From the NCBI RefSeq assembly GCF_008326305.1, contig NZ_BIXY01000003.1, positions 1 to 64,000 of the forward strand: a stretch of DNA of 64,000 nucleotides, read 5' to 3'. The notes below the pieces were generated by a model that had not been told where the DNA came from, ran no database searches, and worked only from the letters and a program-made list of their open reading frames with translations. The DNA comes from Dictyobacter arantiisoli. GTDB lineage: Bacteria > Chloroflexota > Ktedonobacteria > Ktedonobacterales > Ktedonobacteraceae. Both the position numbers and the translations under genes were made by a program. Numbering within the stretch: position 1 is the stretch's first letter; each line of letters opens with the position of its first letter. Of this stretch, positions 13,792 to 45,028 are shown in pieces.

Positions 13792-15435
13792 ATGTATTCT
13801 TTTGGTAGTAACAGGCGCTTTATGCTGGTTGTTGGCATCTTTGGTGTCGCCATGCTGGTCGCTGTCATCGTGGTCTTCATTATTCCACTTTTTAGTCCTT
13901 CTGCTCCCTCTTCTTCCGCTTCTCATACTAAGAGCACTGCTCCGGCTGCTTATCAGGGAATTGCGTATCCTAAATATTCTTTTGCTCCCTATGTCGATGT
14001 CACGGCCACCAAAAATCTTTTTACTTTGATCAATGCTGCTCAGCAACAGGACAACGGCGGAACACGCTTTTTTACGCTGGCATTTGTGACTGCTACGACC
14101 AATTGTCAGGCGACATGGGAGGGTGCACAGGCGATTACCGCTAAAAGTGCGCCTTATCAGAATGAGATAAAAACGCTGCAAGCCAGCGGTGGGGATGCGA
14201 TTGTTTCGTTTGGTGGACCAGTTGCGGGTGCGGGGGTAGAGCAGCAGGATCTTGCGTTGTCCTGTCATGATGTAGCCAGTTTACGCCAACAATATCAAAT
14301 GGTCATTGATCAATATCGCTTGACTCATATCGATTTTGATATTGAAGCAGCATCCTTGCAAGATGATCTATCCATTGATATGCGCAATCAAGCCCTGGCC
14401 CTCTTACACTCCGGTGTAAAGGGCAAGCCTCTCTCAATATCCTATACTCTGCCAGCCACGCCTGCCGTTGGCCTGAGCCCTGCTGGCTATAATCTCTTAG
14501 CGAATGCTATGAAGAACCATGTTACCATCAGTACCGTCAATCTGCTGACAATGAATTTGTATAACAACGATATCTCCGCGCATAAGATGGGGGCGAACAT
14601 TATCAAAGCGGTAGCCAGGGTCTTCAGCCAGCTTGAGAAACTGCAGCAAGATACCAATGTCATGCTCCCGGCGGGCATTGGCATTACTCCAATGCTGGGA
14701 CAAAATACAGATCCGACAGAACGTTTCACGCTGGATGATGCCCAGCAGTTGCTTATCTTTTCTGAGCTGCATAAGCAAGAGATTACCCGTCTCTCGCTCT
14801 GGTCATTGCAGCGTGATCAACCCTGTACGACAGATGGCCCCTCGGATGTACATGATACCTGCAGTGGTTTGACCCAGCCATCCTATGCCTTCAACCGCTT
14901 ATTGAATACTTTTACGAGCGATTCCACGGTGGCGCCAGCAGTAACGCCAACCCCGACACCATCACCGACGCCAAAGCCAAAGCCAAAGCCTACTCCCCGA
15001 CCAACCCCAACGGCGTCCGCACCGTTGCCGCCGCCTGTCGTACCTACTCTACCAGTGCCAACCCCGACAACCCCACCACGGCGGGGCAATTTCGTCGCCA
15101 ATCCTACTTTTAATGGTTTGACAGGGTGGGCATGCGATTCTCATGATGTGGCTCAAAACAATACCCTGCGCATCATCCCAAGTTCGAGCACCAATGGGAG
15201 TTGCTCGCAGGTTATCACAGGCTTGCAGACCAACCATACCTACACCTTGCAGGCGTATGTCAAAGGCAGTTACGCGTATTTACAGGCCAACGGACAGGTA
15301 AATTCGGCCTTTAGTACTGATTATACACTCTTACGCGTCCAATTTTCGACCCATGCATCCACCAGCGTCACGATCTCGATCATGGCTGGCTATGCCCAGC
15401 CCGAGGTTGATGTGCAGAATGTATCCCTGCAATAG
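13792..15435 (+). CDS. GH18-like glycosidase with C-terminal binding module
   Basis: 547 residues. A short N-terminus and one hydrophobic anchor or signal (about 10-33) put the rest outside the cell. Residues 60-370 look like a glycoside hydrolase 18 barrel: the beta-3 motif SFGG at 139-142 and the catalytic DxDxE at D181-F-D-I-E185. A Pro/Thr/Lys-rich linker (about 385-425, PTPTPSPTPKPKPKPTP) leads to a C-terminal beta-sandwich of about 115 residues starting NFVANPTFNGL that resembles carbohydrate-binding modules. Likely acts on chitin, peptidoglycan or a related glycan. ATG 13792 has GAAGGATGG upstream. Controlled by P1-plus. Confidence 0.72.
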   Translation: MYSFGSNRRFMLVVGIFGVAMLVAVIVVFIIPLFSPSAPSSSASHTKSTAPAAYQGIAYPKYSFAPYVDVTATKNLFTLINAAQQQDNGGTRFFTLAFVTATTNCQATWEGAQAITAKSAPYQNEIKTLQASGGDAIVSFGGPVAGAGVEQQDLALSCHDVASLRQQYQMVIDQYRLTHIDFDIEAASLQDDLSIDMRNQALALLHSGVKGKPLSISYTLPATPAVGLSPAGYNLLANAMKNHVTISTVNLLTMNLYNNDISAHKMGANIIKAVARVFSQLEKLQQDTNVMLPAGIGITPMLGQNTDPTERFTLDDAQQLLIFSELHKQEITRLSLWSLQRDQPCTTDGPSDVHDTCSGLTQPSYAFNRLLNTFTSDSTVAPAVTPTPTPSPTPKPKPKPTPRPTPTASAPLPPPVVPTLPVPTPTTPPRRGNFVANPTFNGLTGWACDSHDVAQNNTLRIIPSSSTNGSCSQVITGLQTNHTYTLQAYVKGSYAYLQANGQVNSAFSTDYTLLRVQFSTHASTSVTISIMAGYAQPEVDVQNVSLQ

Positions 15436-15461
15436 CGTTTGGTGAGCCGGCTTAGCAAGAG

Positions 15462-15545: not shown

Positions 15546-16280
15546 TTACTGCTGGCTTTCACGATAATCTGTGATTTGCCAGCCGGTGCCCTTGTTCTGT
15601 GAATCAGGGGCGATTGACTTGAGTAATACAGTCTCACTGCTATCCTGTACTGTTGTCTGCCCATCGATCTGTTGCACGAGCTTATAGGGAACGACCATCG
15701 TAATATAGAGCGTATTATTGTCAAACTCTGAATTAGATAATGCGGGACGGTTTTGTATCTGTGCTACTTCAATGAGCTTACGCTGCTGAATTTTGGTCTG
15801 CCAGGATGCATCGGTACGGATACTTGCGCCTACATTGCTGCTGCCCTTATAGAAACGATACTTGGCCGCGCTTGAGAGCATCGGTATCGCAGCTTCGAGT
15901 GTCTGAAGATTGCGATAATCGAAGGAGTTATAATTCTCAACGAAGGCTCCAGCACAGGCCTGGGCGTTCGCCAGATCTTGTTGGGTACGGTTGGCTTTAT
16001 TCCATTCCGCAGGAAGAGTGGTGGTATCCTGTGTTGCGGTATTTGGTAGATTGGCTGCCTTTAAATAGGTAATATCTTTGGGATCAGCCGTGCATTGTCC
16101 TTCTGGATAATGCACAGTTGGCTGGGATGCCGAGTTTCCCTGCCCAGTGATACTCACGGTGGGAAGCAAGAAACTGGCGATTGGAATTGCTCCTATGCCT
16201 GCCAGGCAAACAATCAGCAGCAATGGATAGAGAAATTTTTTGGTGAATTCTCCCACAATGAGATCTGCGATACTGCTCAT
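15546..16280 (-). CDS. VirB8/TcpC-like bitopic membrane protein
   Basis: 244 residues: about 14 cytoplasmic residues, one membrane helix (15-38, FLYPLLLIVCLAGIGAIPIA), a linker, then a soluble C-terminal domain of about 150 residues. That domain has a helix-rich start (AQACAGAFVENYNSFDYRNLQTLEA) and strands ending GTGWQITDYRESQ, the pattern of NTF2-fold domains in VirB8 and TcpC proteins of type IV secretion channels. The assignment rests on topology, fold pattern and neighbours, not on a known signature. Third gene of a minus-strand unit after the pseudokinase and the 389-residue membrane protein. Confidence 0.5.
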   Translation of the reverse strand: MSSIADLIVGEFTKKFLYPLLLIVCLAGIGAIPIASFLLPTVSITGQGNSASQPTVHYPEGQCTADPKDITYLKAANLPNTATQDTTTLPAEWNKANRTQQDLANAQACAGAFVENYNSFDYRNLQTLEAAIPMLSSAAKYRFYKGSSNVGASIRTDASWQTKIQQRKLIEVAQIQNRPALSNSEFDNNTLYITMVVPYKLVQQIDGQTTVQDSSETVLLKSIAPDSQNKGTGWQITDYRESQQ

Positions 16281-16298
16281 ACTCTGCGAGCCTTTCCA

Positions 16299-17481: not shown

Positions 17482-19203
17482 TTAAAGAGCTATATGGCGT
17501 TTCGTCCTTCTTTGGGTTGATTGGAGTTGCGTTGTATCCTCAGACGCTGCTGGGGTTGTGAAGGTTGGGATTTCACTTTCTATCATTGAAAATAGTTCAT
17601 CGCTCAGGGTGTCGAGCTTCAATGCGAGTTGCGGCTCATCCAGCTCTTCTTCTTCTTCCGCTTCAGTCAGCTCGTCTACCTCATCTGAAGCGTTGAGATG
17701 AGATAACATATCTGATGTATGGGTATCGAGCCAGGCATCCTCGGCGCTGCTATTTTCGTCTACAAAGGTGGCCAGTTGCTTATCTTGTTCCGCAACCTCC
17801 TCTTCAAATGGATTATCGAATAGATCAAGTGGTACTATTTCATCCCTGTCTGCTTGCGAGAGCCATGCAGTATCCTCGTCCTCGTCCTCCTCGTCCTCTG
17901 CAAAAGGATTAACCGGGAAACTGGTGGTTGGATCGTCGGCAGCGGCGCTGGCATATTCTGACATTGTGGCCAGATCATCGCGTAGCGCAGCAAAGAAATC
18001 CTCTTTTTCATCCTCATGTAACGTTTTGGGATCTTGTGCGGTAAGCCACTCATCCTCAGTCGTATCGGTCTGAGGCGAATTGAGCCAGTCTTCTTTTTGT
18101 AGATCTTCAGGCGAGGATGCGACTACAACCACTTCCATCTCAAGGGATGCTGCTGGCTCTTCTGTGAGGCTGGTTACTCCATTTTCATTGGATGTGGCGG
18201 CATCCGCAACCGCTTCTATCGTTCCCTCCCTCAGGGCCAGCGGTGTCGCATGGACGCTCGGCACTATTGATAAGGTGGAATGCGTGATCGCCTGAATCTG
18301 CGCGATGGGCGATACACTGCTGATATCGAGCGGTTTCTCCGTAAGGAACTGGCGGAGCGCTTGCATGAATTCTGCTGTTGTCTGGAAGCGCCGCCTGGGA
18401 TCTCGTTGCAGCGCGCGATTGACGACCATCTCGAGCGCGGCTGGTACTGCGGGCGCGAGTTTATGCAGGGAAGGCAAGGATTCATGGATATGCTTTTGTA
18501 CCACCTCCAGATAGCCTTCACCGGCAAAGGGCACCTGACCACTTAATAATGCAAAGAGTATGACGCCCAGCGTGTAGATATCGGAACGTGTATCCGCTTC
18601 CGCCCCTTTAACAACTTCGGGGGCCAGATACTCCGGGGCTCCCAGATAGCTGCCACTGATATCCTTCAGGTATGGACGGGTGAGCAAGGATTGTTTTTCG
18701 GTATGCACGCCTTTCAGGCCTAGCATCTGTGCCAGCCCCACTCGCATCATCGCCGGTGGATTCCTGCTACCCCTCAGGATAATATTTGCTGGATTGAGAA
18801 ATTGATGAATGACTTTTTGGCTATGCAAATAGGAGAGTCCATGGGCCAGCGGAGCCAGTATGGAATAGACCTGTTCGAGTTCCCAGGGTTGTTGCTCGCT
18901 ACTGAGGCGCTCTGCCAATGTTTCTCCTGTCTGCGGTGGCAAAATAAGATATGGCAAACCACCCTCCTCTCCATACCCATAGAGCGGAGATAGCGAAGGA
19001 TGGCGTAGTCGCATCAAACGCCTGGCAAGTGTCGTAAAGCGTTCATCAAAACGAGCTTTTTCCTGTTCCGTTAACGTCTGGACCGCAGGTAACAATAAGA
19101 TGAATACTTCTGACGGTAGCCAGAGCTCTTCGGTACGTGCGCGATACAGCAGAGTAACCGTTCCATCTTCCAACAGTTCTTCCAGGCAGTATCCACGGAT
19201 CAT
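17482..19203 (-). CDS. Ser/Thr protein pseudokinase with acidic tail
   Basis: 573 residues from ATG 19203 (AAAGGACGG just upstream; an in-frame start at 19305 would translate into the GC-rich repeat and is less likely). Residues 1-270 follow the kinase fold, and APEYLAPEV plus the helix TRSDIYTLGVILFALLSGQVPF are well kept. All three catalytic landmarks are lost: the VAIK lysine position is Leu36 in VFILLL, HRDLKPxN is H133-Q-F-L-N-P-A-N, and DFG is R154-V-G. It should therefore bind partners rather than phosphorylate. The tail (300-573) is acidic and low complexity. First gene of the operon with the HAMP-like and VirB8-like proteins. Confidence 0.75.
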   Translation of the reverse strand: MIRGYCLEELLEDGTVTLLYRARTEELWLPSEVFILLLPAVQTLTEQEKARFDERFTTLARRLMRLRHPSLSPLYGYGEEGGLPYLILPPQTGETLAERLSSEQQPWELEQVYSILAPLAHGLSYLHSQKVIHQFLNPANIILRGSRNPPAMMRVGLAQMLGLKGVHTEKQSLLTRPYLKDISGSYLGAPEYLAPEVVKGAEADTRSDIYTLGVILFALLSGQVPFAGEGYLEVVQKHIHESLPSLHKLAPAVPAALEMVVNRALQRDPRRRFQTTAEFMQALRQFLTEKPLDISSVSPIAQIQAITHSTLSIVPSVHATPLALREGTIEAVADAATSNENGVTSLTEEPAASLEMEVVVVASSPEDLQKEDWLNSPQTDTTEDEWLTAQDPKTLHEDEKEDFFAALRDDLATMSEYASAAADDPTTSFPVNPFAEDEEDEDEDTAWLSQADRDEIVPLDLFDNPFEEEVAEQDKQLATFVDENSSAEDAWLDTHTSDMLSHLNASDEVDELTEAEEEEELDEPQLALKLDTLSDELFSMIESEIPTFTTPAASEDTTQLQSTQRRTKRHIAL

Positions 19204-19261
19204 CCGTCCTTTATAGGGATTAACAGTAGACCCTACCAATGACACCAATAATACCGGTCCT

Positions 19262-19660
19262 TTCTCCTGTGTTCTATGCTTCCCTCTCGCCGCCTGCGGC
19301 GGCAAAGAAAAGAAGAAAAAAGGGTATTTGGGGACACCCCAAACCCCGGCAAAGGGCTGGCCGCCCTTTGCAATCCCGCTTGAAAAGCCTTACGTTCGCG
19401 CCTATGGAGGACATCCCCATAAGTGTGAACTTAAGCGGGATTGTTAAGGGTGCAACCCTTAACCTGGGGTCCGGGGCTGAGCCCCGGCCTCTTATCTCCT
19501 TCTCGCCGCCGCAGGCGGAGAGCTCTTTGCAATCCCGCTTAAGTTTGTGCGGGAGCGGGATTGTTAAGGGTTGCACCCTTAACCTGGGGCTCGGGGCTGA
19601 GCCCCGGTCTCTTACCTCCCTCTCGCCGCCGCAGGCGGAGAGCTCTTTGCAATCCTGCTG
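19262..19660. repeat. GC-rich palindromic repeat cluster
   Basis: Two tandem units of about 120 bp (starting near 19438 and 19558) share GGGATTGTTAAGGG, CGGGGCTGAGCCCCGG, CTCGCCGCCGCAGGCGGAG and CTTTGCAATCC, each holding three small hairpins. A partial unit with CGCCGCCTGCGGCGG lies at 19285-19310. The region has higher GC than its surroundings. Open frames across it on both strands are long only because the repeat lacks stops. It sits between a possible promoter at 19.7 kb and the pseudokinase start. Confidence 0.75.
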
Positions 19661-19946: not shown

Positions 19947-20282
19947 ATGACTATCTTGCTTGATCACTACGAAGCTCCTATCCTCATCAAAAATATTCAA
20001 TGGTGCAATGAACGTCATAAGATAATCATCAAAAATACGACTATTGAGTTAACAAAGACAGAATATCGTCTGCTCTTCCCACTTCGTTATGGTGTCCCTG
20101 TTACCTATACCGATCTCGCCTTTAGTGTCTATGGCTGCCATGTCGATGATAAGGTGCGTACCATGATGGATAAGCACATCGATCGCATTCGTGGCAAGCT
20201 ACGCGGTACCGGGATCTACGTGTATTGTGTGCTCGGTTACGGGTATTTACTTCTGCCTGAAGTCGTGCAAGAAGAATTTTGA
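19947..20282 (+). CDS. Stand-alone OmpR/PhoB-type winged-helix regulator
   Basis: 111 residues that correspond almost entirely to the DNA-binding domain of OmpR/PhoB response regulators: ELTKTEYRLL, then the recognition region DDKVRTMMDKHIDRIRGKL and the wing VYCVLGYGYLL. There is no receiver domain, so activity is not set by phosphorylation of this chain. ATG 19947 has GGAAGGAG ten bases upstream. Proteins with this domain usually bind direct repeats overlapping -35 and activate. The nine box promoters in this locus have that architecture, making this gene the best local candidate for their regulator (inference). Confidence 0.75.
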   Translation: MTILLDHYEAPILIKNIQWCNERHKIIIKNTTIELTKTEYRLLFPLRYGVPVTYTDLAFSVYGCHVDDKVRTMMDKHIDRIRGKLRGTGIYVYCVLGYGYLLLPEVVQEEF

Positions 20283-20334: not shown

Positions 20335-21399
20335 TTACTTTGAGAATAAGGGCTTGCTGAGGGCATTCAGTATAGTGGCTACTCCTTGTTGTATACCTTG
20401 AATCGTGATCCTGGGCAGACTGAAGTGAAATGGGAGCAGTGTTTTTGTCTGGATATAGAACAAGGTGATCATAAAGATAAACATTAATACAATGGCTGGT
20501 AACAGGATATTGGGAGCGGCGGTACTGACAACGCTATGGGTTGTGTGATCATAGCCTTTGCGCGCTATTAAGATACCCTTGCGCTTTCTTCCCCAGAATG
20601 AGACCAGATCACCCTGCTCAATATCAGCTCCACGCATATTGCCGCGCACAATGACGTCGCGGGTCCTGCCGGACTCGGTGCGGACGCGTACTCTATTCAC
20701 CATGATGCGATCAGTTTCTTTGTTGGTCTGGATATTGGGTAAGACCCAGATAAGTTCAGCTAGAAGCGAGAAGATCACTGCCATGATGCCAGGATAGTCA
20801 TTGGGCATTTCCCGGCTCTCCATATGGATGACGTTTCCGTGGACCTTCGGCTTCGTCAGGGCGAACAAAAAAGGTAATTTTCCTGCTTCTGCGGCCTGGG
20901 AGGCAGTCTCAACCGTGTTATTGGCGATGGAGGCAGCGCTGGCGAAATCAGGAATTTGATAGATCTCAAGCGCACTGGCAGGTACGCGTGTCGCGTACGG
21001 TGAATCCTCTTCATCCCGATTGTGCATCGCCCGGGTTGTGAGTGAGCGGGAGGAAGGACGCAGTGCTGGAACATTGCTTACAGTGGAGCTTTTTTGTAAC
21101 TGCACTGGAGCCTTTTTTGCAGGTGCATTGCGAGGGATTTGCACCGGAGCCTTTTGAGCAGGTGCGTTACGCTGTTGTTGCTGCTGCTGTACTGGTACTT
21201 TTCGCGGTTGAGGTTTTAGTGCAGCCTGAGCCAGAGGTGGTATGATTTCCTCATCTGGAAAAGCCGGTACTACCTGCTCGTTAGTTGGTTGAGCACGATA
21301 AGACCGTGCTAGAGGGATAAGTTTAGCATCGCAATTGGCGCATATCCTCGCGGCTTGTGAATTACGATGTCCACATTCCGAACATTTAATCTGTGCCAT
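20335..21399 (-). CDS. Zinc-ribbon membrane protein
   Basis: 354 residues. N-terminal zinc ribbon with C6-x-x-C9 and C20-x-x-C23 (CSECGHRN, CANCD); a Pro/Gln/Ala/Lys-rich linker (60-125) with repeated NAPAxKAPVQ; a compact domain at about 185-275 that includes one hydrophobic stretch (GIMAVIFSLLAELIWVL) and a strand-rich part (DVIVRGNMRGADIEQGDLVSFW) resembling an OB fold; and a membrane helix near 290-312. Cytoplasmic zinc ribbon and membrane anchor suggest an assembly or sensor role. Last gene of the minus-strand unit that begins at 24997. Confidence 0.55.
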   Translation of the reverse strand: MAQIKCSECGHRNSQAARICANCDAKLIPLARSYRAQPTNEQVVPAFPDEEIIPPLAQAALKPQPRKVPVQQQQQQRNAPAQKAPVQIPRNAPAKKAPVQLQKSSTVSNVPALRPSSRSLTTRAMHNRDEEDSPYATRVPASALEIYQIPDFASAASIANNTVETASQAAEAGKLPFLFALTKPKVHGNVIHMESREMPNDYPGIMAVIFSLLAELIWVLPNIQTNKETDRIMVNRVRVRTESGRTRDVIVRGNMRGADIEQGDLVSFWGRKRKGILIARKGYDHTTHSVVSTAAPNILLPAIVLMFIFMITLFYIQTKTLLPFHFSLPRITIQGIQQGVATILNALSKPLFSK

Positions 21400-24997: not shown

Positions 24998-25148
24998 AAA
25001 TACCTCATTATTGCCGCGCGCACAGTGTCGGCGTGCATAAATGGGTTCCTCCCTATTCAAGCTTGCTGCTATCGATCTGTCCCGCGCTGTGCAAGCTATT
25101 TCCATTGTCTCCGTATCTGCTGCCAGGACGAGAGTGCTCCTGTGAAAA

Positions 25149-25193
25149 AGTGTAGGAGAATGCAGATAGAAAAACTAGTCGGAAAGAGGGAAA
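25149..25193 (-). promoter_or_regulatory. Box promoter P2-minus for the coiled-coil operon
   Basis: Minus strand box TTTCCCTCTTTCCGACTAG (25193 down to 25175), then TACACT starting 39 bp after the first base (25154-25149). The leader to ATG 24997 is about 145 nt. Confidence 0.7.
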
Positions 25194-25262
25194 AATGGGA
25201 GTATTTTGCCTGTTAAGCAGCATCTTTTACTAAGATTTAACAATGTTAATTTAGCATTAAAT

Positions 25263-30280: not shown

Positions 30281-30310
30281 GTTTGCCAATTGAGCCGCAG
30301 CGAGACAAAT

Positions 30311-30355
30311 ATTCCCTACTTCTGACTAGTATTTAACCAGCGTTCCCTTTATACT
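30311..30355 (+). promoter_or_regulatory. Box promoter P3-plus for the 521-residue repeat gene
   Basis: Box ATTCCCTACTTCTGACTAG begins at 30311 and -10 TATACT begins at 30350, 39 bp after the first base. It diverges from P3-minus with 30 bp between the boxes. Confidence 0.7.
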
Positions 30356-32050: not shown

Positions 32051-32102
32051 CTATACTGCGTATTTTACATCAAGCTTATGCCTGCTGGTCGTGAAGAGAA
32101 TT

Positions 32103-32148
32103 TGTCCCTCTTTCTCTCTCGTTATTCAGCGCGTTTTTCTCTACTATA
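32103..32148 (+). promoter_or_regulatory. Box promoter P4 for the first VirB6-like gene
   Basis: Box TGTCCCTCTTTCTCTCTCG begins at 32103; TACTATA begins at 32142, 39 bp later. The leader to ATG 32258 is about 100 nt. Confidence 0.75.
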
Positions 32149-34036: not shown

Positions 34037-34041
34037 CATTT

Positions 34042-34087
34042 TGTCCCTCTTTTCTACTCGCCTTTAGGGATATCTTTCTCTACTATA
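34042..34087 (+). promoter_or_regulatory. Box promoter P5 for VirB6-like paralogs 2 and 3
   Basis: Box TGTCCCTCTTTTCTACTCG begins at 34042, only 6 bp after the preceding stop codon; TACTATA begins at 34081, 39 bp later. Confidence 0.75.
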
Positions 34088-36042: not shown

Positions 36043-37824
36043 ATGAAAGAGCGATTGCAGCACTGGCATGCCCTATGGACCGAGAAATCCTCTTCCTATC
36101 TTGATCCTCTTTTTGGAACAGAACAGCCTGAAGCAGGGCACAGGCGGCCTCACTTAAGACATATGGTGAGAAATGCTATCAAGGATTGGCAACAGGCTTC
36201 AGAGCCAGCTCCGAAGAAAAGTATCTGGTCTCGTCTGCTTGTCACGCTGGCTTGCTTTGCGATTGGTTTTTTGCTCTTACTCAATACTCATCCTGTTGCC
36301 TGGCAGGCAAGCTCTACCACGAGTGCAAACACACGCGCAGCTTCAGCACAGGGGATAAAACTTCCGAGCTATCAACCAGGCAAGGGTGCGGTCAACGACA
36401 CGAACACCTTGCAATGTAATCTCAATGAGCCCGCATCTTATTATTTCCCCAATAACACCAGTGATAGTACGAAGGAGGCTCCGAATAATCCCAATGGCGG
36501 TTGTGCGTTCTCCACAGCCAATTATAGCTGTTCGTATGATCCGCTGGGCTCGGCCAATGGGAATGGTGACACCTTCGCCTCCTGCACGATTAACGGTGTT
36601 TTTTATGAATGTCCGATAACAGATGATAATGCCGCGCTCAGTACCCTGACCTGCCGAGATGGCAATGGTCATACCTGTAACATTACAAACTGTCCTATCA
36701 ACGGGCCATGCATCAATACAGGGAAGACAGATGCTATCACTGGATTGCCTATCGTCGCAACTCCAACGGTGACCAGTGGAACGGCTTCACCGGAGTCTAC
36801 TGATACCTTGGATGTTTGTCCCTTACCTGTGAAGGAGGATTGCACGACCATTGCAGCGGGGGGAAATGATGTGATTGGAGGGACGACTGGCTTATTAAGC
36901 ACGACACCCGATACCTCAACCTATAACTCTGCCCAGGTCACAACAGCATGGCAATCGGTCTTGCTGGTAGTGGGTGGATTGGTTGCTTTTGCCCTGACAA
37001 TCGCTGGCTATCGAGTGATGCTAAGTCCTTTCAGCACACGCTATGCCACTTCTGCTGAGACCATTGGCCGGGTAGTGATTGCTGGTGTGGCTGCCATTGT
37101 GAGTCTGTTCTTCATTGGTGAGTTGATCAGTATCCTGAACGCGTTCAGTGCCGTTGTAAAGACGTTTACCTTTAACAATGGCCTCAGCGGTGATTTTTCT
37201 ACCGCCTTTGCCTCATTTTCAGGCAATAGTTTATCGTCAGTGGGTGTCCCCTCATCGCGCTGGGGCTGTAATGTGCAGCAGTTCTTCGGCAATGTGTTCA
37301 ACATGTCAGTCTATAATTTACAGGCCGCCCGGAAGGATATCAATGCTACCCAGCATGCATCGCTGATATTTACTGCTTCCGCCAATTTGATCAATCATAT
37401 ACCTGATTATCTACTGACCTTGATGACAATTTTGCTGGCAATCCAACTGATGTTGCGTCTGGTATTTGTCAATGGCTATATTGTGATCAGCCCATTAATT
37501 ATCTTTTGTTCTGCGCTACCAGGCGCGTTGAGTAGCGGTATTTTGCGGCGCTGGCTCCATGATTTTCTGGCCCTGCTAGCAGTCCAGTTTATTCAGTTAT
37601 TCGCGGCAGTAGTTATAATTTTATTATTTGATGGTGCCCAGGCTGCTTTTGGTACTTCATGGCCAGGCCAGCTTATTGCCCGTTTCCTGCCGATCATTAG
37701 CATGATGATCATTTTAAATATACCCAGACTGCTCAATTCGTCGGCAACGACCCTGCTGTCATCGATTACATCCTCAATATCGGGATCAATCACAGGCATT
37801 ACCCTGATCATTCGTGGCCTTTGA
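36043..37824 (+). CDS. VirB6/TrbL-like polytopic protein with Cys-rich domain, paralog 3
   Basis: 593 residues, zero-base gap from paralog 2, so the two are certainly co-transcribed and probably translationally coupled. Same architecture: membrane helix at about 64-83, YQPGKGAVN, Cys-rich exported domain (about 122-235; YSCSYDP, CTINGVFYECPI, LTCRDGNGHTC), C-terminal helices with RWGCNVQQFFGNVFNMSVYNLQ and LNIPRLLNSSAT. Divergence from its siblings is spread over the length, so the duplication is not recent. Confidence 0.65.
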   Translation: MKERLQHWHALWTEKSSSYLDPLFGTEQPEAGHRRPHLRHMVRNAIKDWQQASEPAPKKSIWSRLLVTLACFAIGFLLLLNTHPVAWQASSTTSANTRAASAQGIKLPSYQPGKGAVNDTNTLQCNLNEPASYYFPNNTSDSTKEAPNNPNGGCAFSTANYSCSYDPLGSANGNGDTFASCTINGVFYECPITDDNAALSTLTCRDGNGHTCNITNCPINGPCINTGKTDAITGLPIVATPTVTSGTASPESTDTLDVCPLPVKEDCTTIAAGGNDVIGGTTGLLSTTPDTSTYNSAQVTTAWQSVLLVVGGLVAFALTIAGYRVMLSPFSTRYATSAETIGRVVIAGVAAIVSLFFIGELISILNAFSAVVKTFTFNNGLSGDFSTAFASFSGNSLSSVGVPSSRWGCNVQQFFGNVFNMSVYNLQAARKDINATQHASLIFTASANLINHIPDYLLTLMTILLAIQLMLRLVFVNGYIVISPLIIFCSALPGALSSGILRRWLHDFLALLAVQFIQLFAAVVIILLFDGAQAAFGTSWPGQLIARFLPIISMMIILNIPRLLNSSATTLLSSITSSISGSITGITLIIRGL

Positions 37825-37829
37825 TATTT

Positions 37830-37875
37830 TGTCCCTCTTTCCTACTCGCTATTTGTACGAGAATTTCTTACTATA
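37830..37875 (+). promoter_or_regulatory. Box promoter P6 for VirB6-like paralog 4 and the channel genes
   Basis: Box TGTCCCTCTTTCCTACTCG begins at 37830, 6 bp after the stop of paralog 3; TACTATA begins at 37869, 39 bp later. It is the last box in the locus and probably serves the run of genes to 45028. Confidence 0.75.
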
Positions 37876-38029: not shown

Positions 38030-39523
38030 ATGAAAAAAAAGCTTCTCCGCTCTATTACAATTATGATGCGTGCCATGTATGCATGGCTCAAACATTTTGC
38101 CTCACACGAAAACAAGCCCAGGGGCTTTCTTTATCGTGCAGGTGCGACTGTGCTATGCTTTGTAATTGGATTGTTTTTTTTATCCCTGGCCCATCCCATC
38201 TCTCTGTTTGCCTCTTCCAACCATTCTCAAAAGATTGTCATGCACGCTGTGGCGAAAGGGAATTCTAGCTCTACCATTCACGCGTATGTGCCTGGTAAAG
38301 GTGGCGTTACCAGCGCGTCCATGAATGCAGCTGATCCGGTCACCATTTGTTATACGAATGGGAATGGAAATACTGGCAATACGAGTACCCCTGATCCAAT
38401 TACGAACTTGCCGCAAATTAAGGCCACTGGCACTGCCACTGCCACAACCAACGAGAAGGACCAATTAAATGGACAGCAGGCACCGATTTGTGAAGTGCCC
38501 GTGGATGCCACCTGTACTAGCACTCTTGGGGCTGATGATGCATTGGTGGGAACCAATGGTTTGCTGAACTCAACACCGGCTGCATCTACCTATTCATCAG
38601 GTGAGATCGTCACGGCTGAAAAGTCTATGCTAGGCATTGCGCTGGCTCTGCTGGTGATTCCCTTCGCCCTGGCTGGTTATCAGATTATGCTGAGCCCTTT
38701 TAGTGCGCGCTATGCCAATGGCGTTGAGCTGGTTGGTCGTATTATTATTACCGCCGCTGCCGCCGCTGTTAGTTTATACTTTATTGGCCTGGCTATCGAC
38801 TTCTTGAATGGACTGGGCGCAACCATTTCTACCATCTCGTTTGGTACCATCGATCCCCAGGTGATTGCAATTCTGGCGAAATTTTTCCCATTTCTCGCAG
38901 GCCTGTCTAATGTTCATCGGACGGTTGCGATTGGTATGCCATCAGGAGCCTGGCAATGCAATGTACACCAATTTTTGGGGAATATCTTCAATCTCTCGGT
39001 CTATAACTTAGAGGCGGCAAATCAGCAAATCGATTCCGCCTCACAAGCTCAAAAGATATATGTTGCTACCGCGCACCTGATCAGCAACTTGCCCAACTAT
39101 ATCCTGACATTGTTGACGATTGTACTGGCAATTCAACTGACAGTGCGACTGGTATTTGTCAATGCCTACATCATTATCAGTCCTTTGATGATTGTGGTAG
39201 GAGCATTGCCGGGGGCGGAAGAGATTGGTCCAAGCATTATGCGGGGATGGTTGCGAGGTTTTATGGGTTTGTTAGCAGTGCAATTCGTGCAGCTATTTGC
39301 GGCCGTTGCCAGCATGCTATTGTTTACCACCGCGCAGGCCGACTTTGCCAATGATCCATGGGCATCAAGTCTGGTGGGAACGATGATTCCGATTGTCAGT
39401 GTCATGCTGGTACTGAATGTACCCAGATTACTTAACTCGTCAGCTACCTCGATGATTGCACAGATTGCCTCATCGATCAGTGGTTCTATGACGGGTATTG
39501 TTTTGATCATTCGAGGTTTCTAA
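38030..39523 (+). CDS. VirB6/TrbL-like polytopic protein, short paralog 4
   Basis: 497 residues. It keeps the N-terminal membrane helix (about 36-55), YVPGKGGVT and the C-terminal membrane domain (AWQCNVHQFLGNIFNLSVYNLE, LNVPRLLNSSAT), but the Cys-rich exported domain is mostly deleted; only the short stretch with VTICYTNGNGNTG and CEVPVDATC remains. It has an insert before WQCNV like paralog 2. GGGAG precedes the ATG. First gene of the presumed channel operon with CHAP, pilin-like, PrgI-like and VirB4-like genes. Confidence 0.65.
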   Translation: MKKKLLRSITIMMRAMYAWLKHFASHENKPRGFLYRAGATVLCFVIGLFFLSLAHPISLFASSNHSQKIVMHAVAKGNSSSTIHAYVPGKGGVTSASMNAADPVTICYTNGNGNTGNTSTPDPITNLPQIKATGTATATTNEKDQLNGQQAPICEVPVDATCTSTLGADDALVGTNGLLNSTPAASTYSSGEIVTAEKSMLGIALALLVIPFALAGYQIMLSPFSARYANGVELVGRIIITAAAAAVSLYFIGLAIDFLNGLGATISTISFGTIDPQVIAILAKFFPFLAGLSNVHRTVAIGMPSGAWQCNVHQFLGNIFNLSVYNLEAANQQIDSASQAQKIYVATAHLISNLPNYILTLLTIVLAIQLTVRLVFVNAYIIISPLMIVVGALPGAEEIGPSIMRGWLRGFMGLLAVQFVQLFAAVASMLLFTTAQADFANDPWASSLVGTMIPIVSVMLVLNVPRLLNSSATSMIAQIASSISGSMTGIVLIIRGF

Positions 39524-39566: not shown

Positions 39567-40454
39567 ATGCTGAGACGCTGGCTGAGAACGCGCAGGGCGC
39601 GCAGACGTTTGCGGCTTGGTCTGATTGTGGTAGGAATCGTAAGCATTTTTATCGTTGCAACCTGGAATGTAGGAGAGAGCGCTACAGACATTGCTCCATC
39701 GCAACCTGTGCACGCTCAGGCCAGTCGCATGACACCGGCTGTGTGGGCAAGCACTACCGTGGCTACGCCTGCTCCAACGATAACCGATAATACGTCAGCG
39801 GCGCTTCCTCTGCGAACAGGACCATTGGGAGCACGGCTGGCAGCTATAGCAAGCGCCATGCAAGGACATCTTTATGGTCCGCTTGCCAATCAATATGACG
39901 CGCATGATGTTGTGTTACAGAGTGCTTTACATTATTGGAAGAGCACCTGCCATAATCCTGATGGTTCGTTTTGCGATGAGGCAAAGAGTGGCTCACTGCA
40001 ATGCGTCGAATTTGTCACTGGTGTCTTTGCTGCGGTTGGTGATCCACTCCCGGTCAGTGGTATTGGTCAGGCCAATCAGTTCTGGCAACTCTATCAGCGG
40101 CGTGCCGGTTGGCAGGAGATTCCTGCCGGTGGTATGCCCCAGCCGGGCGATATCGTGACCTGGAGTGAGGACCCTGATCCTTTGAATCCAACGCAAGAGG
40201 TCTATGGACATCTGGCATTGGTCGTGGCAGTGCAGGCCCCGGTTGGACTGCGTGATGGCTCTATCAAGATCGCGCAGGCGAATGCGCCGGGCTCGCTCTA
40301 TCCAGGCAGTGGACATACTGGCAACTTTTATCTGTTACAGTGGCATGGGCCAGCCTATCTTAAGGTTCATCGGGCTGACAAACATCCGCCTGAGGCCCTT
40401 GTTTCATGGCCGCGCTTCCATGTGCAAGGATTTATTCGCCAGCTGGATCAGTAA
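39567..40454 (+). CDS. CHAP-domain peptidoglycan hydrolase (VirB1-like role)
   Basis: 295 residues. Basic N-terminus with a membrane helix (about 17-37) anchors an exported C-terminal domain. Residues about 130-285 match a CHAP amidase/peptidase: catalytic Cys in SLQCVEFVTGVF, then MPQPGDIVTWSED, and the catalytic His in GHLALVVAV. In type IV systems of monoderm bacteria CHAP or NlpC/P60 enzymes open the cell wall for the channel, the job VirB1 does elsewhere. Position between VirB6-like and pilin-like genes supports this. ATG 39567 has GGGGAG upstream. Confidence 0.75.
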   Translation: MLRRWLRTRRARRRLRLGLIVVGIVSIFIVATWNVGESATDIAPSQPVHAQASRMTPAVWASTTVATPAPTITDNTSAALPLRTGPLGARLAAIASAMQGHLYGPLANQYDAHDVVLQSALHYWKSTCHNPDGSFCDEAKSGSLQCVEFVTGVFAAVGDPLPVSGIGQANQFWQLYQRRAGWQEIPAGGMPQPGDIVTWSEDPDPLNPTQEVYGHLALVVAVQAPVGLRDGSIKIAQANAPGSLYPGSGHTGNFYLLQWHGPAYLKVHRADKHPPEALVSWPRFHVQGFIRQLDQ

Positions 40455-40528
40455 GCGTATTATTTTGTCACGCTTCATTTTTTGATTTTTTATGCGAAAT
40501 GCATAAGATACAGAAAGGAATTCATCAG

Positions 40529-40882
40529 ATGTCTACAATAGCTACAATTGCATTAAACATACCTTTTAGTGCTATCCATGTTTCACTGACCTCATATTAT
40601 CAGATGACGCACCATATTGCTACCGTCTGTCCTGTCAATTCTCCTAATGCCCCGACACAAATAGAAAGCGCGATTACTAATATTGTGAACTTTATGTCCT
40701 CCCTCGGAGCTGTTGTTTGCGCCCTGGGTATTGCAGTAGGCGGATTGATGCGTGCAACTTCCTTTGGTAACGAGCGTCGCGTCTCAGAATCCAATATGGC
40801 GATTACCTGTGCTGTGATTGGCCTGGGTACAGTCTTGCTGGCTCAGACACTGGGCACCTGGCTTGGTGGTATGTTTTGTTAA
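40529..40882 (+). CDS. Small two-helix VirB2/pilin-like protein
   Basis: 117 residues from ATG 40529, which has GAAAGG upstream; the in-frame start at 40406 would overlap the CHAP gene. Two hydrophobic helices (about 54-74 and 88-113) are joined by a short polar loop, SFGNERRVSES, and preceded by about 50 residues. This is the topology of VirB2/TrbC-type pilins and of the small subunits beside PrgI in Gram-positive type IV loci. Its place directly before the VirB3- and VirB4-like genes is the usual virB2-virB3-virB4 order. Assignment is by topology and order. Confidence 0.5.
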   Translation: MSTIATIALNIPFSAIHVSLTSYYQMTHHIATVCPVNSPNAPTQIESAITNIVNFMSSLGAVVCALGIAVGGLMRATSFGNERRVSESNMAITCAVIGLGTVLLAQTLGTWLGGMFC

Positions 40883-40944: not shown

Positions 40945-40987
40945 TTGACATCGTCAATAAGTGTTCCCCTGGAAAGAGTCGCAAGGG

Positions 40988-41380
40988 ATGAAGAAAGAAG
41001 AGTTTCCAACTTTTTTAAATCAGCAACCGACGGTCGTTTTTGGACGTACCGGACGGGAACTGTTGATTTTTTGTATTGGGCTGGGTCTGGGTTTTATGAT
41101 CTGGACAGACCTGCGTTTACCGGCTACAGGCGTCGGTGTCATTGTGTTGAAGGCTATTCTGGCGGTTATCCCTATGATCCTGTGCCTGATTGTGGCTTTT
41201 GTCAAAGTTTCGTCTCGACCGCTGGAAGATTGGGCTGTGGTATTACTGTTATATATCGCTCTTCCAAAGGTCTATCTCTATATGCCGCTTGAAGAAAACG
41301 ATGACGATGATGATCTTACTGATGCGTATTCTGGTTTAAATAGACCAATCAATCCTGATGATGATGATCGCTACAATTAA
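40988..41380 (+). CDS. PrgI/VirB3-like membrane protein
   Basis: 130 residues from ATG 40988 (AAGGG just upstream is close; GAAAGAGTCGCAAGGG precedes). N-terminus FPTFLNQQPTVVFGRTGRELL leads into two membrane helices (about 27-46 and 52-74) and an acidic tail ending in DDDDR. This is the size and topology of PrgI/TcpE/VirB3 proteins, which dock the VirB4 ATPase to the channel. The VirB4-like gene starts 18 bp downstream. Confidence 0.6.
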   Translation: MKKEEFPTFLNQQPTVVFGRTGRELLIFCIGLGLGFMIWTDLRLPATGVGVIVLKAILAVIPMILCLIVAFVKVSSRPLEDWAVVLLLYIALPKVYLYMPLEENDDDDDLTDAYSGLNRPINPDDDDRYN

Positions 41381-41398: not shown

Positions 41399-44053
41399 AT
41401 GTCAACTGCTCCAAAACCTCCAGGTATGTTGGTAAATACGCCACTGAATGTTTTGAACACCTTTGTGAAGCTGCGTGATGTGACCAACGATGTGGCGTGC
41501 GTCAATCTTGGCCGGAAAAGTCTCGATTACCGTGCTATTGTCAAAGTCTTTCCAATGAACTTTGCACTGCTTTCTGAGGATGAGCAAGAAGGTGTTATCG
41601 AGGGCTTTAAAGAATTTCTGAATGGTATTTCCTTTCCGATTCAGGTGCTGATTCGCAATCTGCCCCATAACTTGAATAGCTATTTGCATGTGATGGAATC
41701 GGTGGAAGGGGATCTGGAAGAGATGGCGCACGACCATGCGAAGTTTGTACGCCAGCTTTCCTCACGACGCGCGCTGGTGAAGCGCGAGTTCTATATTATC
41801 TTGCCCGCCGATCAGCAACCAAGCAAAAATTCGGCTGAGTCGGCTATGAATGCGCAGATGCAGCTTAAATTGCGTGTCGATGAGCTGTTACGCCAATTGG
41901 AACGCGTTGGCTTGAATGGACAGCGTCTGACCAGCCTGGAGATTGTACGGCTCTATCAGGGTTGCTTTGTGTCCACCGAGGGATGGAGCCGTCCCACGAC
42001 GAAAACGATGCTGGACGGTACCAATAGCTTGATGCGCTCTGCCTGGGAGCCTGAATCTCGTCCCTCCTCAGCCCTCTCGCAGATGGCACGCTCTGAGAAC
42101 AAGCAGGCTGCCGCACAGGCGGGTAAAAAACAGCCCAAGAAGAAGCCGCAGAAGCAGAAAAAGAAGATTCCTGGCCTTACCCAGGTGGCGGAATTGATCT
42201 CTCCCAGCTCAATTGAAATTACGCCTTCCTACCTGCGGATTGATGGCGAGAACGATCATGAATATACACGAACCCTGGCCCTGGTAAGTTATCCCCGTAG
42301 CGCTTATCCGGGATGGTTTGAGAGTATCATTCAGGTTGATGAGCCGAACGTGGATTTCAGCATTCATATTCAACCCTTGCCTCCTGAAGAAGTAAATGCA
42401 CGCCTGGCACGTAAGGCGGTCGAGTTCCGTGGCTCGGTGATTTTTTCTGAGCGCCAGGGACGGACGGCTAATCCTACTTCGACGATTGCGTTGAATGACG
42501 TCGAGAAGTTACGCGAGAACCTTGCCCGTGGTGATGAGCGCGTCTTTAATATCTCTACTTTTGTGCTGGTACGTGGCCGTGATCGCCGCGAATTGAGCGA
42601 GCGGAGTGATCGTCTGATCGCGGTTATCCGTAGTATGGACTTCCGCGCCCTGCCAGTGCGCTGGCAACACCATATGGGCTTGCTCAGTTGTTTGCCCGAT
42701 CTCAATAATCAGATCATGCGTGGACGCCTCTTTGGTACTAATTCCGCCGCCACCTTCTACCCCTTCACCGGTAGCAATATCAGTATGGACACTGGCGTGA
42801 TGTTTGGAGTCGATCCCAATGGTGGTTTGATTATCCTGGACCCCTTTAATAGCGAAATATTGGAAAATGCCAATATGGTTGTCTTTGCTAAATCGGGTGC
42901 CGGTAAAAGCTTCTTCCTGAAAACGGTCACCTGCCGCCTGCTGCCTACAGCCAACGTCTTTGTCATCGATCCAGAGGCTGAATATAACCATCTGTGTGAG
43001 CAGGTGAATGGACAGTATGTGCGCCTCTCATCTGAATCCTTAGAGATCAATCCCTTTGAATTGTATGGGAATACCGGCAAGGCTCCTGATCCTGAGAATG
43101 AGGATGATGCAGTGGAAGAAGGGAATTTCTTCCGTGAGAAATTGCTCAATCTGATCACCTTACTGGAATTGCTGCTGTCGGATGAAGGTGTTCTGACCCA
43201 GAAAGAGAAGGCTTTTCTCTATCGCTGTCTGATCAAGACCTACCAGAACCGTGGTATTACGATGGAGAGTTCCACTCATGGACGCGTGCCACCCAATATG
43301 CAGGAGTTCTATGTGATCATGTCGAGCTCGCTGCGGGGCGACAAACGTTTCGGGGTTGGCGATGATACCTATGGATTGAGCGAGCGTCTGGAACGTTACC
43401 TGCACCTTTTCCCATCCCGCACCAAAGTTGTGCTGGATAATCGTTTCATTGATTTTAATATTCGCGAGTTGAATAATACGCTGAAGCCAGTGGGACTCTT
43501 TTTGATCACCGAGTTCCTGTGGACGAAGATGCGTCAGGCTCGCCAGGCTCTGGAGGGTGAGGCAAAAAATACAATTGTGCTGATTGACGAAGCATGGTTG
43601 TTGATGCAATTCCAGCAAGGAGCCAAGTTTCTTGAGGAATTTGCCCGCAGAATTCGTAAATATGGTGGTGGCCTCTGGTGTACCACACAGAATTCGGATG
43701 ACTTCTTGAGCTCGGATGAAGGAAAGACGATCCTGGCGATGGCAACGATGAAGTTTTTGATGAAGCAGGATAGCAGCACCATTGATTCGGTTACCAAAAC
43801 CTTCCGTCTAAGCCCTCGCCAGCGTAGTATGTTGTTGGGTGCCCGCCGTGGTGAAGGTCTCTTCGCCACTCGCAACTGGACTCCCATGGAGGTCGTTGCC
43901 TCGCCGAAAGAGGCAGAGATGGCAAATACCACCATTGCTTCTTCGTTATCTCATACTGTGGCGGAACAGGAGGCTGAGTTAAACAATCTGGCGGAGTTTG
44001 ATGAGAATATGCTGTTTCAGGGTGCCTTCGCAGATGGGGGAGAAAGGCTGTAA
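41399..44053 (+). CDS. VirB4/TraE-like type IV secretion ATPase
   Basis: 884 residues. Start ATG with AAGGAGGAAGG. The N-terminal third is the partner-binding domain of VirB4-type ATPases and contains a Lys-rich insert (about 235-255, KKQPKKKPQKQKKK). C-terminal motor: Walker A FAKSGAGKSFFLK near residue 500, FVIDPEAEYNHL just after, Walker B IVLIDEAWLLM near 727, and the GGGLWCTTQN sensor. It powers assembly of the channel or pilus and substrate transfer at the inner face of the membrane. It is the clearest marker that this locus is type IV secretion related. Confidence 0.85.
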   Translation: MSTAPKPPGMLVNTPLNVLNTFVKLRDVTNDVACVNLGRKSLDYRAIVKVFPMNFALLSEDEQEGVIEGFKEFLNGISFPIQVLIRNLPHNLNSYLHVMESVEGDLEEMAHDHAKFVRQLSSRRALVKREFYIILPADQQPSKNSAESAMNAQMQLKLRVDELLRQLERVGLNGQRLTSLEIVRLYQGCFVSTEGWSRPTTKTMLDGTNSLMRSAWEPESRPSSALSQMARSENKQAAAQAGKKQPKKKPQKQKKKIPGLTQVAELISPSSIEITPSYLRIDGENDHEYTRTLALVSYPRSAYPGWFESIIQVDEPNVDFSIHIQPLPPEEVNARLARKAVEFRGSVIFSERQGRTANPTSTIALNDVEKLRENLARGDERVFNISTFVLVRGRDRRELSERSDRLIAVIRSMDFRALPVRWQHHMGLLSCLPDLNNQIMRGRLFGTNSAATFYPFTGSNISMDTGVMFGVDPNGGLIILDPFNSEILENANMVVFAKSGAGKSFFLKTVTCRLLPTANVFVIDPEAEYNHLCEQVNGQYVRLSSESLEINPFELYGNTGKAPDPENEDDAVEEGNFFREKLLNLITLLELLLSDEGVLTQKEKAFLYRCLIKTYQNRGITMESSTHGRVPPNMQEFYVIMSSSLRGDKRFGVGDDTYGLSERLERYLHLFPSRTKVVLDNRFIDFNIRELNNTLKPVGLFLITEFLWTKMRQARQALEGEAKNTIVLIDEAWLLMQFQQGAKFLEEFARRIRKYGGGLWCTTQNSDDFLSSDEGKTILAMATMKFLMKQDSSTIDSVTKTFRLSPRQRSMLLGARRGEGLFATRNWTPMEVVASPKEAEMANTTIASSLSHTVAEQEAELNNLAEFDENMLFQGAFADGGERL

Positions 44054-45028
44054 ATGAAGCTATTTGGAAATGAGGAAGCCGCTGAACCAGCTTCTACACG
44101 CGAACAACTTGCGGTCCGCTTAGGAATTATTTTCCTGGCGGCCGTATTGATCATCTGGCTCTCTGGCGGTTTTCCACCCACTGTCTGGACCCTGTTAATA
44201 AAGATTTTCCTGTACTGGAATGTCTATTGGTCCACCAAACACAATGGATTGGGCGTACCCCTGATTATCTTAATTATCCAGTCACTGCTGCTGCTGGTTG
44301 CCTGGATCTTGTTAATTGTGAGTGTGGTACGTGAAATCAGAGGCTTTTTATCCCCTGAGGATTATAGCTCTCCCATTGAGCCTGTGCCGGCTGTTCAGGC
44401 TGTTCAGACGCCTGAGCCAGCCGCAGTGGAGAATGTGGTTAGTCGTAGCAAAACGGCTCGACAGGCGACTCAGATGCTACCACCAACCCCAACAGCTACG
44501 CGGAAGCGTGCACCTGCACCGGATGCAACGGAAAATACCGGCAGCCTACGTAATCCATTTGAGATAGATACCCAACCCACGGTGGTAAAGGCGGGAACTC
44601 GCAAGCAGACGACGGCTAAAAAATCGTCAGATGCAAGCAATTCACGCACCACTAAAGTCCCCGAGCCTGCCAGTAAAGCTTATACCCCCCGTGATCCTTT
44701 TGATGTGCAATTGGATGTGCTGGATCTATTTGATCAGGCGCAGCAATCAGAAGATGATCCTTTCTCACATGACAAGGTGGATATTGCAGAGGAACAAACA
44801 ATTGTAGAGGAGCCAGAGCAAGAAGAGCCAGCAGAATTCGTGTATGGAAATCCTTTTGAAGGACCGCTCCCTGAAGTTTTTGAGTACGATGCAGACCTCA
44901 AGCGATCAGTTGATGATATGAACACGGAGCGGGATGCTAAGGCCGCTGAAAAGCTTGCTGCCAGTAAAGATAAGGACAGCAAAAAGATTGCCTCAACCAA
45001 AAAAACTGCTGTAGATCCAGACGCATAA
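44054..45028 (+). CDS. Membrane protein with long acidic cytoplasmic tail
   Basis: 324 residues, starting directly after the VirB4-like stop codon. Two to three membrane helices in the first 100 residues (LGIIFLAAVLIIWLSGG, then IILIIQSLLLLVAWILLIV), then a low-complexity tail rich in Pro, Thr, Lys, Glu and Asp with repeated short motifs such as NPFEID, DPFDVQLD and NPFEGP. No family recognised. The spacing makes it part of the channel operon; the tail could bind partner proteins through its NPF/DPF motifs (inference). Confidence 0.55.
   Translation: MKLFGNEEAAEPASTREQLAVRLGIIFLAAVLIIWLSGGFPPTVWTLLIKIFLYWNVYWSTKHNGLGVPLIILIIQSLLLLVAWILLIVSVVREIRGFLSPEDYSSPIEPVPAVQAVQTPEPAAVENVVSRSKTARQATQMLPPTPTATRKRAPAPDATENTGSLRNPFEIDTQPTVVKAGTRKQTTAKKSSDASNSRTTKVPEPASKAYTPRDPFDVQLDVLDLFDQAQQSEDDPFSHDKVDIAEEQTIVEEPEQEEPAEFVYGNPFEGPLPEVFEYDADLKRSVDDMNTERDAKAAEKLAASKDKDSKKIASTKKTAVDPDA

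What the first reader, a model, noticed from the sequence alone, without database searches (positions are those of the whole stretch)
13792..45028. A type IV secretion-like machine without relaxase, integrase or classic coupling protein
The locus has a VirB4-like ATPase, PrgI/VirB3-like, pilin-like and VirB8/TcpC-like proteins, a CHAP hydrolase and four VirB6-like proteins, all linked by the shared promoter box to a GH18-like glycosidase, a HerA-like ATPase and long coiled-coil proteins. No relaxase, integrase, origin of transfer or att repeat is seen. Inference: a resident protein-export, DNA-uptake or cell-contact device in a monoderm Chloroflexota rather than a conjugative element.
Basis: partly seen in the sequence, partly recalled or inferred. 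Interest (0 to 1): 0.8.

Follow-up and report, generated by a model that had tools for sequence, protein, structure and literature searches.

The report
Relaxase-free secretion island with HerA
A filamentous, sporulating soil bacterium and its relatives carry on their chromosomes a DNA-transfer-type secretion machine without the DNA-nicking enzyme, always paired with a HerA-type motor and fast-changing parts, so it probably delivers proteins (less likely DNA) to other cells, a job hardly known for such machines in Gram-positive bacteria.

Summary
Window 13,526-45,028 carries a complete monoderm-type type IV secretion (T4SS) gene set: VirB4, PrgI/VirB3, VirB2-type pilin, four VirB6, a VirB8 (fold-matched to DotI, TraM and TrwG), CHAP hydrolase and GH18 chitinase. 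It also has a 1,076-aa HerA ATPase, coiled-coil proteins and a kinase, tied together by one promoter box concentrated in this island. The genome holds no VirD4-type coupling protein and no relaxase of the two families tested, and shows no integrase or att repeat near the locus.

Nine informative islands in Ktedonobacteria (Dictyobacter, Ktedonobacter, Ktedonospora, Thermosporothrix, strain brp13) share the set. HerA lies within 12.2 kb of VirB4 in 9 of 9, a relaxase within 20 kb in 0 of 9, a coupling protein within 30 kb in 5 of 9. Of 36 other VirB4 loci in the class, 29 have a coupling protein alongside, 19 a relaxase, none HerA. Island VirB4s group together. In Ktedonobacter, a probably extracellular VirB6 loop and the gene after HerA diverge strongly while VirB4 stays 98% identical. 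Best reading: a domesticated, MOBless T4SS, probably delivering variable proteins; Ced-like DNA exchange is the main rival. The neighbouring GAP1 gene is chromosomal backbone.

The parts
11403..13277 (-). 624-aa protein, one TM helix, disordered repeats and extracellular C-terminal part; regulon member (own box), not conserved
   Evidence: box 13485-13504(-); no Pfam hit; TM
13485..13545 (.). divergent pair of promoter boxes (13485-13504 -, 13526-13545 +)
13792..15435 (+). GH18 chitinase-family protein, TM anchored, C-terminal CBM-like region
   Evidence: phmmer vs PDB exochitinase E 1.8e-44; CBM_4_9 weak
15546..16280 (-). VirB8/TcpC-like bitopic protein
   Evidence: Foldseek DotI/TraM/IcmL/TrwG E 2e-4 to 4e-3; homologue in a conjugative element, L133, and beside mem389-kinase in L135
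16299..17468 (-). mem389: two TM helices plus helical signalling-type region; found in 8 of the 9 islands
   Evidence: weak histidine-kinase match
17482..19305 (-). Ser/Thr protein kinase with acidic tail; kinases of this family in every island region
   Evidence: Pkinase 8.2e-24
19947..20282 (+). stand-alone PhoB/OmpR-type winged-helix DNA-binding protein; candidate binder of the box (inference)
   Evidence: NCBIfam PhoB C-terminus 4e-7; in every island region
20335..21399 (-). zinc ribbon + OB-like beta domain + TM helix; 9/9 islands
   Evidence: fold match weak
21469..22551 (-). 360-aa soluble helical protein, window only
22607..25105 (-). 832-aa coiled-coil protein at the hypervariable place between HerA and the zinc-ribbon gene; candidate cargo or scaffold
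   Evidence: position kept, sequence and length not
25175..25194 (-). promoter box of the coiled-coil gene
26925..30155 (-). HerA/DUF87 ATPase, 1,076 aa
   Evidence: DUF87 1.7e-8; HerA structures; NCBIfam CedD 1.6e-17, ser_rich 2.9e-37; 9/9 islands
30256..30335 (.). divergent HerA/p521 promoter region with two variant boxes (30282 -, 30309 +)
   Evidence: sites not used to build the matrix
30485..32050 (+). 521-aa repeat protein (EEVAPISEEASTFS repeats); first gene on the T4SS side; window only
32102..32121 (+). promoter box of VirB6-a
32258..34036 (+). VirB6-like a
34041..34060 (+). promoter box of VirB6-b
34237..36042 (+). VirB6-like b
36043..37824 (+). VirB6-like c
37829..37848 (+). promoter box of VirB6-d operon
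38030..39523 (+). VirB6-like d
39567..40454 (+). CHAP cell-wall hydrolase (VirB1-like)
   Evidence: CHAP 2.1e-11
40406..40882 (+). VirB2-like pilin (T4SS_pilin)
   Evidence: PF18895 3.2e-8
40961..41380 (+). PrgI/VirB3-like
   Evidence: PrgI 2.3e-5; 36-52% identity in relatives
41399..44053 (+). VirB4 ATPase
   Evidence: PF19044 8.6e-23; NCBIfam conju_CD1110 5.6e-82
44054..45028 (+). mem324: two TM helices plus cytoplasmic tail with repeated NPF(D/E) motifs; 9/9 islands
45101..45161 (.). perfect 29-nt inverted repeat, probable terminator ending the T4SS operon

Best explanation
This is a chromosomal, relaxase-less (MOBless) type IV secretion island of mycelial, sporulating Ktedonobacteria, descended from a conjugation machine. 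Inferred mechanism: a standard monoderm channel (VirB4 with VirB3, VirB6 and VirB8, pilin, CHAP and chitinase to open walls) is served by a HerA ATPase recruited from another context. HerA acts in place of, or beside, the VirD4 coupling protein. It hands over the fast-evolving soluble protein encoded right after it, which would be exported to, or into, neighbouring cells. The fast-changing VirB6 loop would recognise the partner. The kinase, the membrane signalling protein and a PhoB-type regulator would control assembly through the shared box. Shown by computation: gene content, conservation, absences, common promoter, variability. Inferred: direction, cargo, target, and HerA as substrate receptor.
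For: Core set conserved in nine informative islands. Clear split from 36 other VirB4 loci of the same class: HerA 9/9 against 0/36 within 20 kb, relaxase 0/9 against 19/36, adjacent coupling protein 0/9 against 29/36. Island VirB4s on one side of a branch, support 97/94. Coupling protein kept in five islands and absent from the window's genome, so dispensable, while HerA is never lost. The gene after HerA is 34-67% identical between species with 97.7-98.4% identical VirB4, and ranges from 103 to 1,694 aa across islands. One VirB6 loop has a block 24-46% identical flanked by 82-100%, with 65% of fourfold sites changed against 14-17% in the flanks, i.e. replaced by recombination (G033 against G034). 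Two GH18 chitinases at different places joined two islands. Relaxase-less VirB4 clusters were proposed to be mostly protein exporters (PMC3158045).
Against: No cargo is identified: the variable proteins scanned match no toxin or effector family (Pfam, PADLOC) and could be structural scaffolds. HerA-family ATPases mostly move DNA, and the curated matches include CedD of an archaeal DNA-exchange system. Some sister islands keep a coupling protein. A shared C-terminal tail, as expected of a secretion signal, is seen in only five variable proteins.
Confidence: 0.5

Rival explanations
1. A bacterial counterpart of archaeal Ced/Ted: a domesticated T4SS that moves chromosomal DNA between kin hyphae or imports it, with HerA supplying or pulling the DNA.
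For: VirB4, VirB6 and VirB2 homologues on the chromosome without relaxase, as in Ced/Ted; Ted loci commonly carry a HerA gene (PMC9905601); HerA matches NCBIfam CedD at 1.6e-17; zinc ribbon plus weak OB-like fold in a 9/9-conserved membrane protein.
Against: No nuclease or recombinase (NurA, Rad50, Mre11) found among the island ORFs scanned; related HerAs elsewhere in Chloroflexota lie beside HSP70/FHA, Band_7 or coiled-coil genes, not DNA-repair genes, as far as scanned; the extreme variability of the HerA-linked soluble protein is not expected for DNA transport.
Confidence: 0.25
2. A decaying or cryptic conjugative element whose relaxase is of an unrecognised type or was lost.
For: Origin from conjugation is clear; islands lie at different chromosomal places in one genus and are missing in some species; other relaxase families were not searched.
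Against: All genes intact in several species; same set kept from Dictyobacter to Thermosporothrix; same site in three Ktedonobacter species (flanking families); no integrase or att; no close relative on plasmids (listed best places 22-29% identity).
Confidence: 0.15
3. An adhesion or pilus device that no longer moves substrates, with variable surface loops, as proposed for Bartonella Trw.
For: VirB2-like pilin present; hypervariable, probably extracellular VirB6 loop; no coupling protein in four informative islands.
Against: Does not explain the strictly kept HerA and its variable soluble partner.
Confidence: 0.1

Closest known systems
MOBless T4SS (Guglielmini et al. 2011, PMC3158045)
   Same: VirB4 cluster, with or without coupling protein, without relaxase, chromosomal, derived from conjugation
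   Different: HerA, kinase, zinc-ribbon membrane protein and several VirB6 copies added; a search of the held papers for Ktedonobacter with type IV secretion returned no study of this locus
Archaeal Ced/Ted DNA-exchange systems (PMC9905601, PMC11868833)
   Same: Domesticated VirB4/VirB6/VirB2 machine without relaxase; HerA-type ATPase in or near the system
   Different: Here VirB3, VirB8 and CHAP are kept and no repair genes are linked; HerA is a different, longer protein without predicted TM helix
Streptococcus suis 89K T4SS and Saccharibacteria T4SS (reviewed in PMC12857230)
   Same: Monoderm VirB1/B3/B4/B6/B8 sets proposed or shown to do something other than conjugation; pilins in the latter
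   Different: Both have a VirD4-type protein; neither is described there with HerA or a tandem VirB6 array
Systems lacking VirD4: Ptl, Brucella VirB, Bartonella Trw, Helicobacter ComB (PMC12857230)
   Same: T4SS working without coupling protein; Trw has multiple sequence-variable surface subunits
   Different: Diderm hosts, no HerA described
Rickettsiales rvh T4SS with tandem extended VirB6 (own knowledge)
   Same: Several long VirB6 paralogues in tandem, no conjugation
   Different: Diderm; keeps VirD4; no HerA; not tested here

Membership tests
Type IV secretion system, monoderm type | VirB4 ATPase | tested here: met
Type IV secretion system, monoderm type | VirB3 (PrgI) and VirB6 membrane subunits | tested here: met
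   PrgI by Pfam (just under cut-off) and synteny; VirB6 by topology and homology to the class's conjugative loci
Type IV secretion system, monoderm type | VirB8 NTF2-like protein | tested here: met
   Foldseek to DotI, TraM, TrwG; in other islands only found in G030
Type IV secretion system, monoderm type | VirB1-like cell-wall hydrolase (CHAP) | tested here: met
MOBless T4SS | VirB4 cluster lacking a relaxase | tested here: met
   PF03432 and PF13814 absent from the whole genome; MOB_F, MobA_MobL and Mob_Pre families not searched genome-wide
Integrative conjugative element | Relaxase with coupling protein | tested here: not met
Integrative conjugative element | Integrase and att repeats at the ends | tested here: not met
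Ced/Ted DNA-exchange system | Chromosomal VirB4 + VirB6 + VirB2 without relaxase | tested here: met
Ced/Ted DNA-exchange system | Moves chromosomal DNA | not testable with these tools
   needs genetics
Ced/Ted DNA-exchange system | Linked repair genes (NurA, Rad50) as in some Ted loci | tested here: not met
   no such Pfam hit in the main window ORFs
GAP1-N2 GTPase conflict system (Kaur 2020) | DO-GTPase next to GAP1 | tested here: not met
   GAP1-N2 at 45372-49943, no DO-GTPase-like hit in neighbouring window ORFs; GAP1 is backbone

The most novel reading that the evidence does not exclude
A monoderm T4SS in which a HerA-type ATPase, recruited together with the gene after it, has displaced the VirD4 coupling protein and delivers rapidly diversifying proteins into other cells, with an exchangeable VirB6 surface loop choosing the partner. 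This would be a new way of loading a T4SS and a dedicated effector or kin-interaction system in multicellular Chloroflexota.
Probability: 0.3. Interest if true: 0.85.

Novelty: new variant of a known kind. Interest (0 to 1): 0.64.

Why it matters
[quoted passage not shown] Here a relaxase-free machine is conserved across filamentous, sporulating, Gram-positive-staining bacteria, several of them named strains (Ktedonobacter racemifer, Dictyobacter aurantiacus, Thermosporothrix hazakensis), with a candidate cargo gene and natural lineages with and without coupling protein. That makes the question testable. If HerA does the coupling, it is a new kind of substrate receptor; if DNA is moved, it would be a bacterial counterpart of Ced/Ted, a domestication whose describers knew of none in other organisms (PMC9905601).

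Tried and rejected
GAP1-N2 (45372-49943) as system member: rejected, it belongs to the tig-clpX-lon-larC-GAP1 backbone in four same-genus genomes whose corresponding place has no T4SS. tRNA-Gly as att site: the only full copy is a second tRNA-Gly at 63986, on the far side of clpX-lon, not flanking the island. Phage origin: only distant HerA matches in phage records, PHROG hits limited to generic ATPase regions and low-complexity stretches. Anti-phage defence: PADLOC hits are generic kinase and HerA profiles. NPF motif as a system-wide docking code: strong only in mem324 (27 against 0.34 expected); in HerA and VirB4 it lies in the conserved ATPase part, and of the kinases only the window's has it. 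Promoter box in other islands at up to 4 mismatches: essentially absent, so the box itself is lineage-specific. VirB8 and VirB6 by PDB sequence search: nothing useful. A first region request failed for a one-base overrun; one Pfam call failed for wrong coordinates and was not repeated.

Full report
WHAT IS THERE. The window is the start of a 143-kb contig of a 7.2-Mb Ktedonobacteria genome, in the same genus, by the tool's kinship, as Dictyobacter aurantiacus. VirB4 (41399-44053) hits P-loop_TraG at 8.6e-23 and NCBIfam conju_CD1110 at 5.6e-82. Before it lie PrgI/VirB3, a VirB2-type T4SS pilin, a CHAP hydrolase and four polytopic VirB6-like proteins. The 244-aa protein at 15546-16280 had no database hit. 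Its homologues lie in a Thermosporothrix conjugative element (VirB4, coupling protein and relaxase within 17 kb, L133) and beside the same kinase/membrane pair in a relative (L135). A model built from five such sequences has moderate confidence (mean pLDDT 63), but its best PDB matches are all VirB8-family: DotI, TraM, IcmL-like, TrwG. The GH18-like gene is a chitinase-family protein (1.8e-44).

ONE REGULON. The box TTTGTCCCTCTTTYCTACTCG followed by TACTATA lies before GH18, the 624-aa protein, the coiled-coil gene and three VirB6 genes (the last element is degenerate in two). Genome-wide, 7 of 11 matches with up to three mismatches fall in this stretch; the same pattern reversed gives 5 in the whole genome. 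A weight matrix from six sites gives as its next best window hits the two divergent promoters between HerA and p521 and the one facing p172, none used for training. Which protein reads the box is not shown; a stand-alone PhoB-type DNA-binding protein encoded in the island is the natural candidate.

THE ISLAND IN RELATIVES. VirB4 relatives of 64-75% identity occur in eight further genomes of the 47 searched, among them D. aurantiacus, strain brp13 (two islands), Ktedonobacter racemifer, K. robiniae, K. sp. SOSP1-85, Ktedonospora formicarum and Thermosporothrix hazakensis. Neighbourhood comparison shows a shared set: HerA, zinc-ribbon membrane protein, kinase and (8 of 9) mem389, winged-helix protein, one to five VirB6, CHAP, pilin, PrgI, VirB4, mem324. 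HerA above 50% identity occurs in these nine genomes and two more. More distant HerAs in other Chloroflexota have no VirB4 beside them; their neighbours include HSP70/FHA, Band_7 or coiled-coil genes. So HerA, possibly with a coiled-coil partner, was recruited to the T4SS.

NOT A CONJUGATIVE ELEMENT, WITH A CONTROL. The same class carries 36 other VirB4 loci. Of these, 29 have a coupling protein within 5 kb, 19 have a Replic_Relax or Relaxase gene within 20 kb, and none has this HerA within 20 kb. Among the nine informative island loci the counts are 0 (adjacent coupling protein), 0 (relaxase) and 9 (HerA). A VirB4 tree puts the island sequences on one side of one branch, 97/94. The window's genome has neither relaxase family anywhere and no coupling protein by sequence or profile. 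Other relaxase families were not searched genome-wide, and the assembly is 97% complete. Integrases exist in the genome but none within about 85 kb on this contig; no att-like repeat was found.

CORRECTION ON THE COUPLING PROTEIN. Five islands carry, 11-29 kb from VirB4, a 950-1,110-aa ATPase whose profile finds TrwB and DotL first among solved structures. It is thus an old part of the island, lost in the window's lineage and in the three Ktedonobacter species, while HerA was never lost.

PLACE IN THE CHROMOSOME. Four same-genus genomes share the order tig-clpX-lon-larC-GAP1, and none has a T4SS there; in the window the T4SS operon ends about 340 bp from the GAP1 gene. D. aurantiacus and brp13 have their islands elsewhere. 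In the three Ktedonobacter species flanking gene families agree. The island therefore changes place over longer times but is stable over shorter ones. GAP1 is not part of it.

FAST-CHANGING PARTS. In Ktedonobacter pairs whose VirB4 is 97.7-98.4% identical, the gene after HerA is 34-67% identical with length changes. Across islands this position holds proteins of 103 to 1,694 aa with unrelated bodies; in Ktedonobacter, Ktedonospora and Thermosporothrix the last residues are alike. The last VirB6 has a ~200-residue block in the large loop between its third and fourth TM helices (probably outside, by the positive-inside rule) at 24-46% identity between stretches of 82-100%. Fourfold sites in the block differ at 65%, flanks at 14-17%, so the block was exchanged rather than mutated step by step (K. 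robiniae against K. sp. SOSP1-85).

MECHANISM. Shown by computation: composition, conservation, absences, common promoter, variability. Inferred: the variable proteins are cargo, the VirB6 loop contacts the partner, and HerA stands in for the coupling protein. I rank protein export or contact delivery first (0.5) because relaxase-less T4SS were argued to be mostly protein exporters (PMC3158045), and because a hypervariable soluble partner and surface loop fit interaction with other cells. Ced-like DNA exchange is second (0.25): HerA matches CedD and Ted loci carry HerA (PMC9905601), but repair genes are missing.

VERDICT. A new variant of a known kind (MOBless T4SS), not a new kind of machine; unusual in its host type, its HerA partner and its optional coupling protein, and testable in named strains.

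Noticed in passing
45372-49943: GAP1-N2 protein of the Kaur 2020 conflict systems, conserved at the tig-clpX-lon-larC backbone in four same-genus genomes, with no GTPase partner among the neighbouring window genes scanned.
   Followed up: partly
50547-50621 and 63986-64061 (just past the window): Two identical tRNA-Gly genes in the same orientation bracket the larC-lon-clpX-tig stretch.
   Followed up: no
30485-32050: 521-aa protein with near-perfect 21-nt-based SEEVAPISEEASTF repeats, Ser/Glu-rich tail and a C-terminal hydrophobic stretch; first gene on the T4SS side, found only in this genome.
   Followed up: no
44054-45028 and orthologues: Cytoplasmic tail of mem324 carries repeated NPF(D/E) motifs in all nine islands (27 against 0.34 expected by shuffling) and a conserved VFGNPFEGPLPDVF; binding partner unknown.
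   Followed up: partly
L035:5311-6216 and five other islands: A leucine carboxyl methyltransferase (LCM) gene adjoins the zinc-ribbon membrane gene in six islands but not in the window.
   Followed up: no
G033, G034 (L037, L041), G032 and G043 regions between HerA and ZnTM: The short variable proteins carry repeats such as VNINQVNINQVNNHYNVTNNITINN or GNVTVNN, reminiscent of amyloid-signalling motifs.
   Followed up: no
L095:1176-2018: In genome G021, HerA without T4SS is preceded by an Imm49 immunity-protein gene, a hint of a toxin link of this HerA family.
   Followed up: no
8865-10850: NB-ARC/TPR protein with N-terminal HTH beside the island; relatives of it also occur near the D. aurantiacus island and near a conjugative-type T4SS locus of Ktedonospora formicarum.
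   Followed up: no
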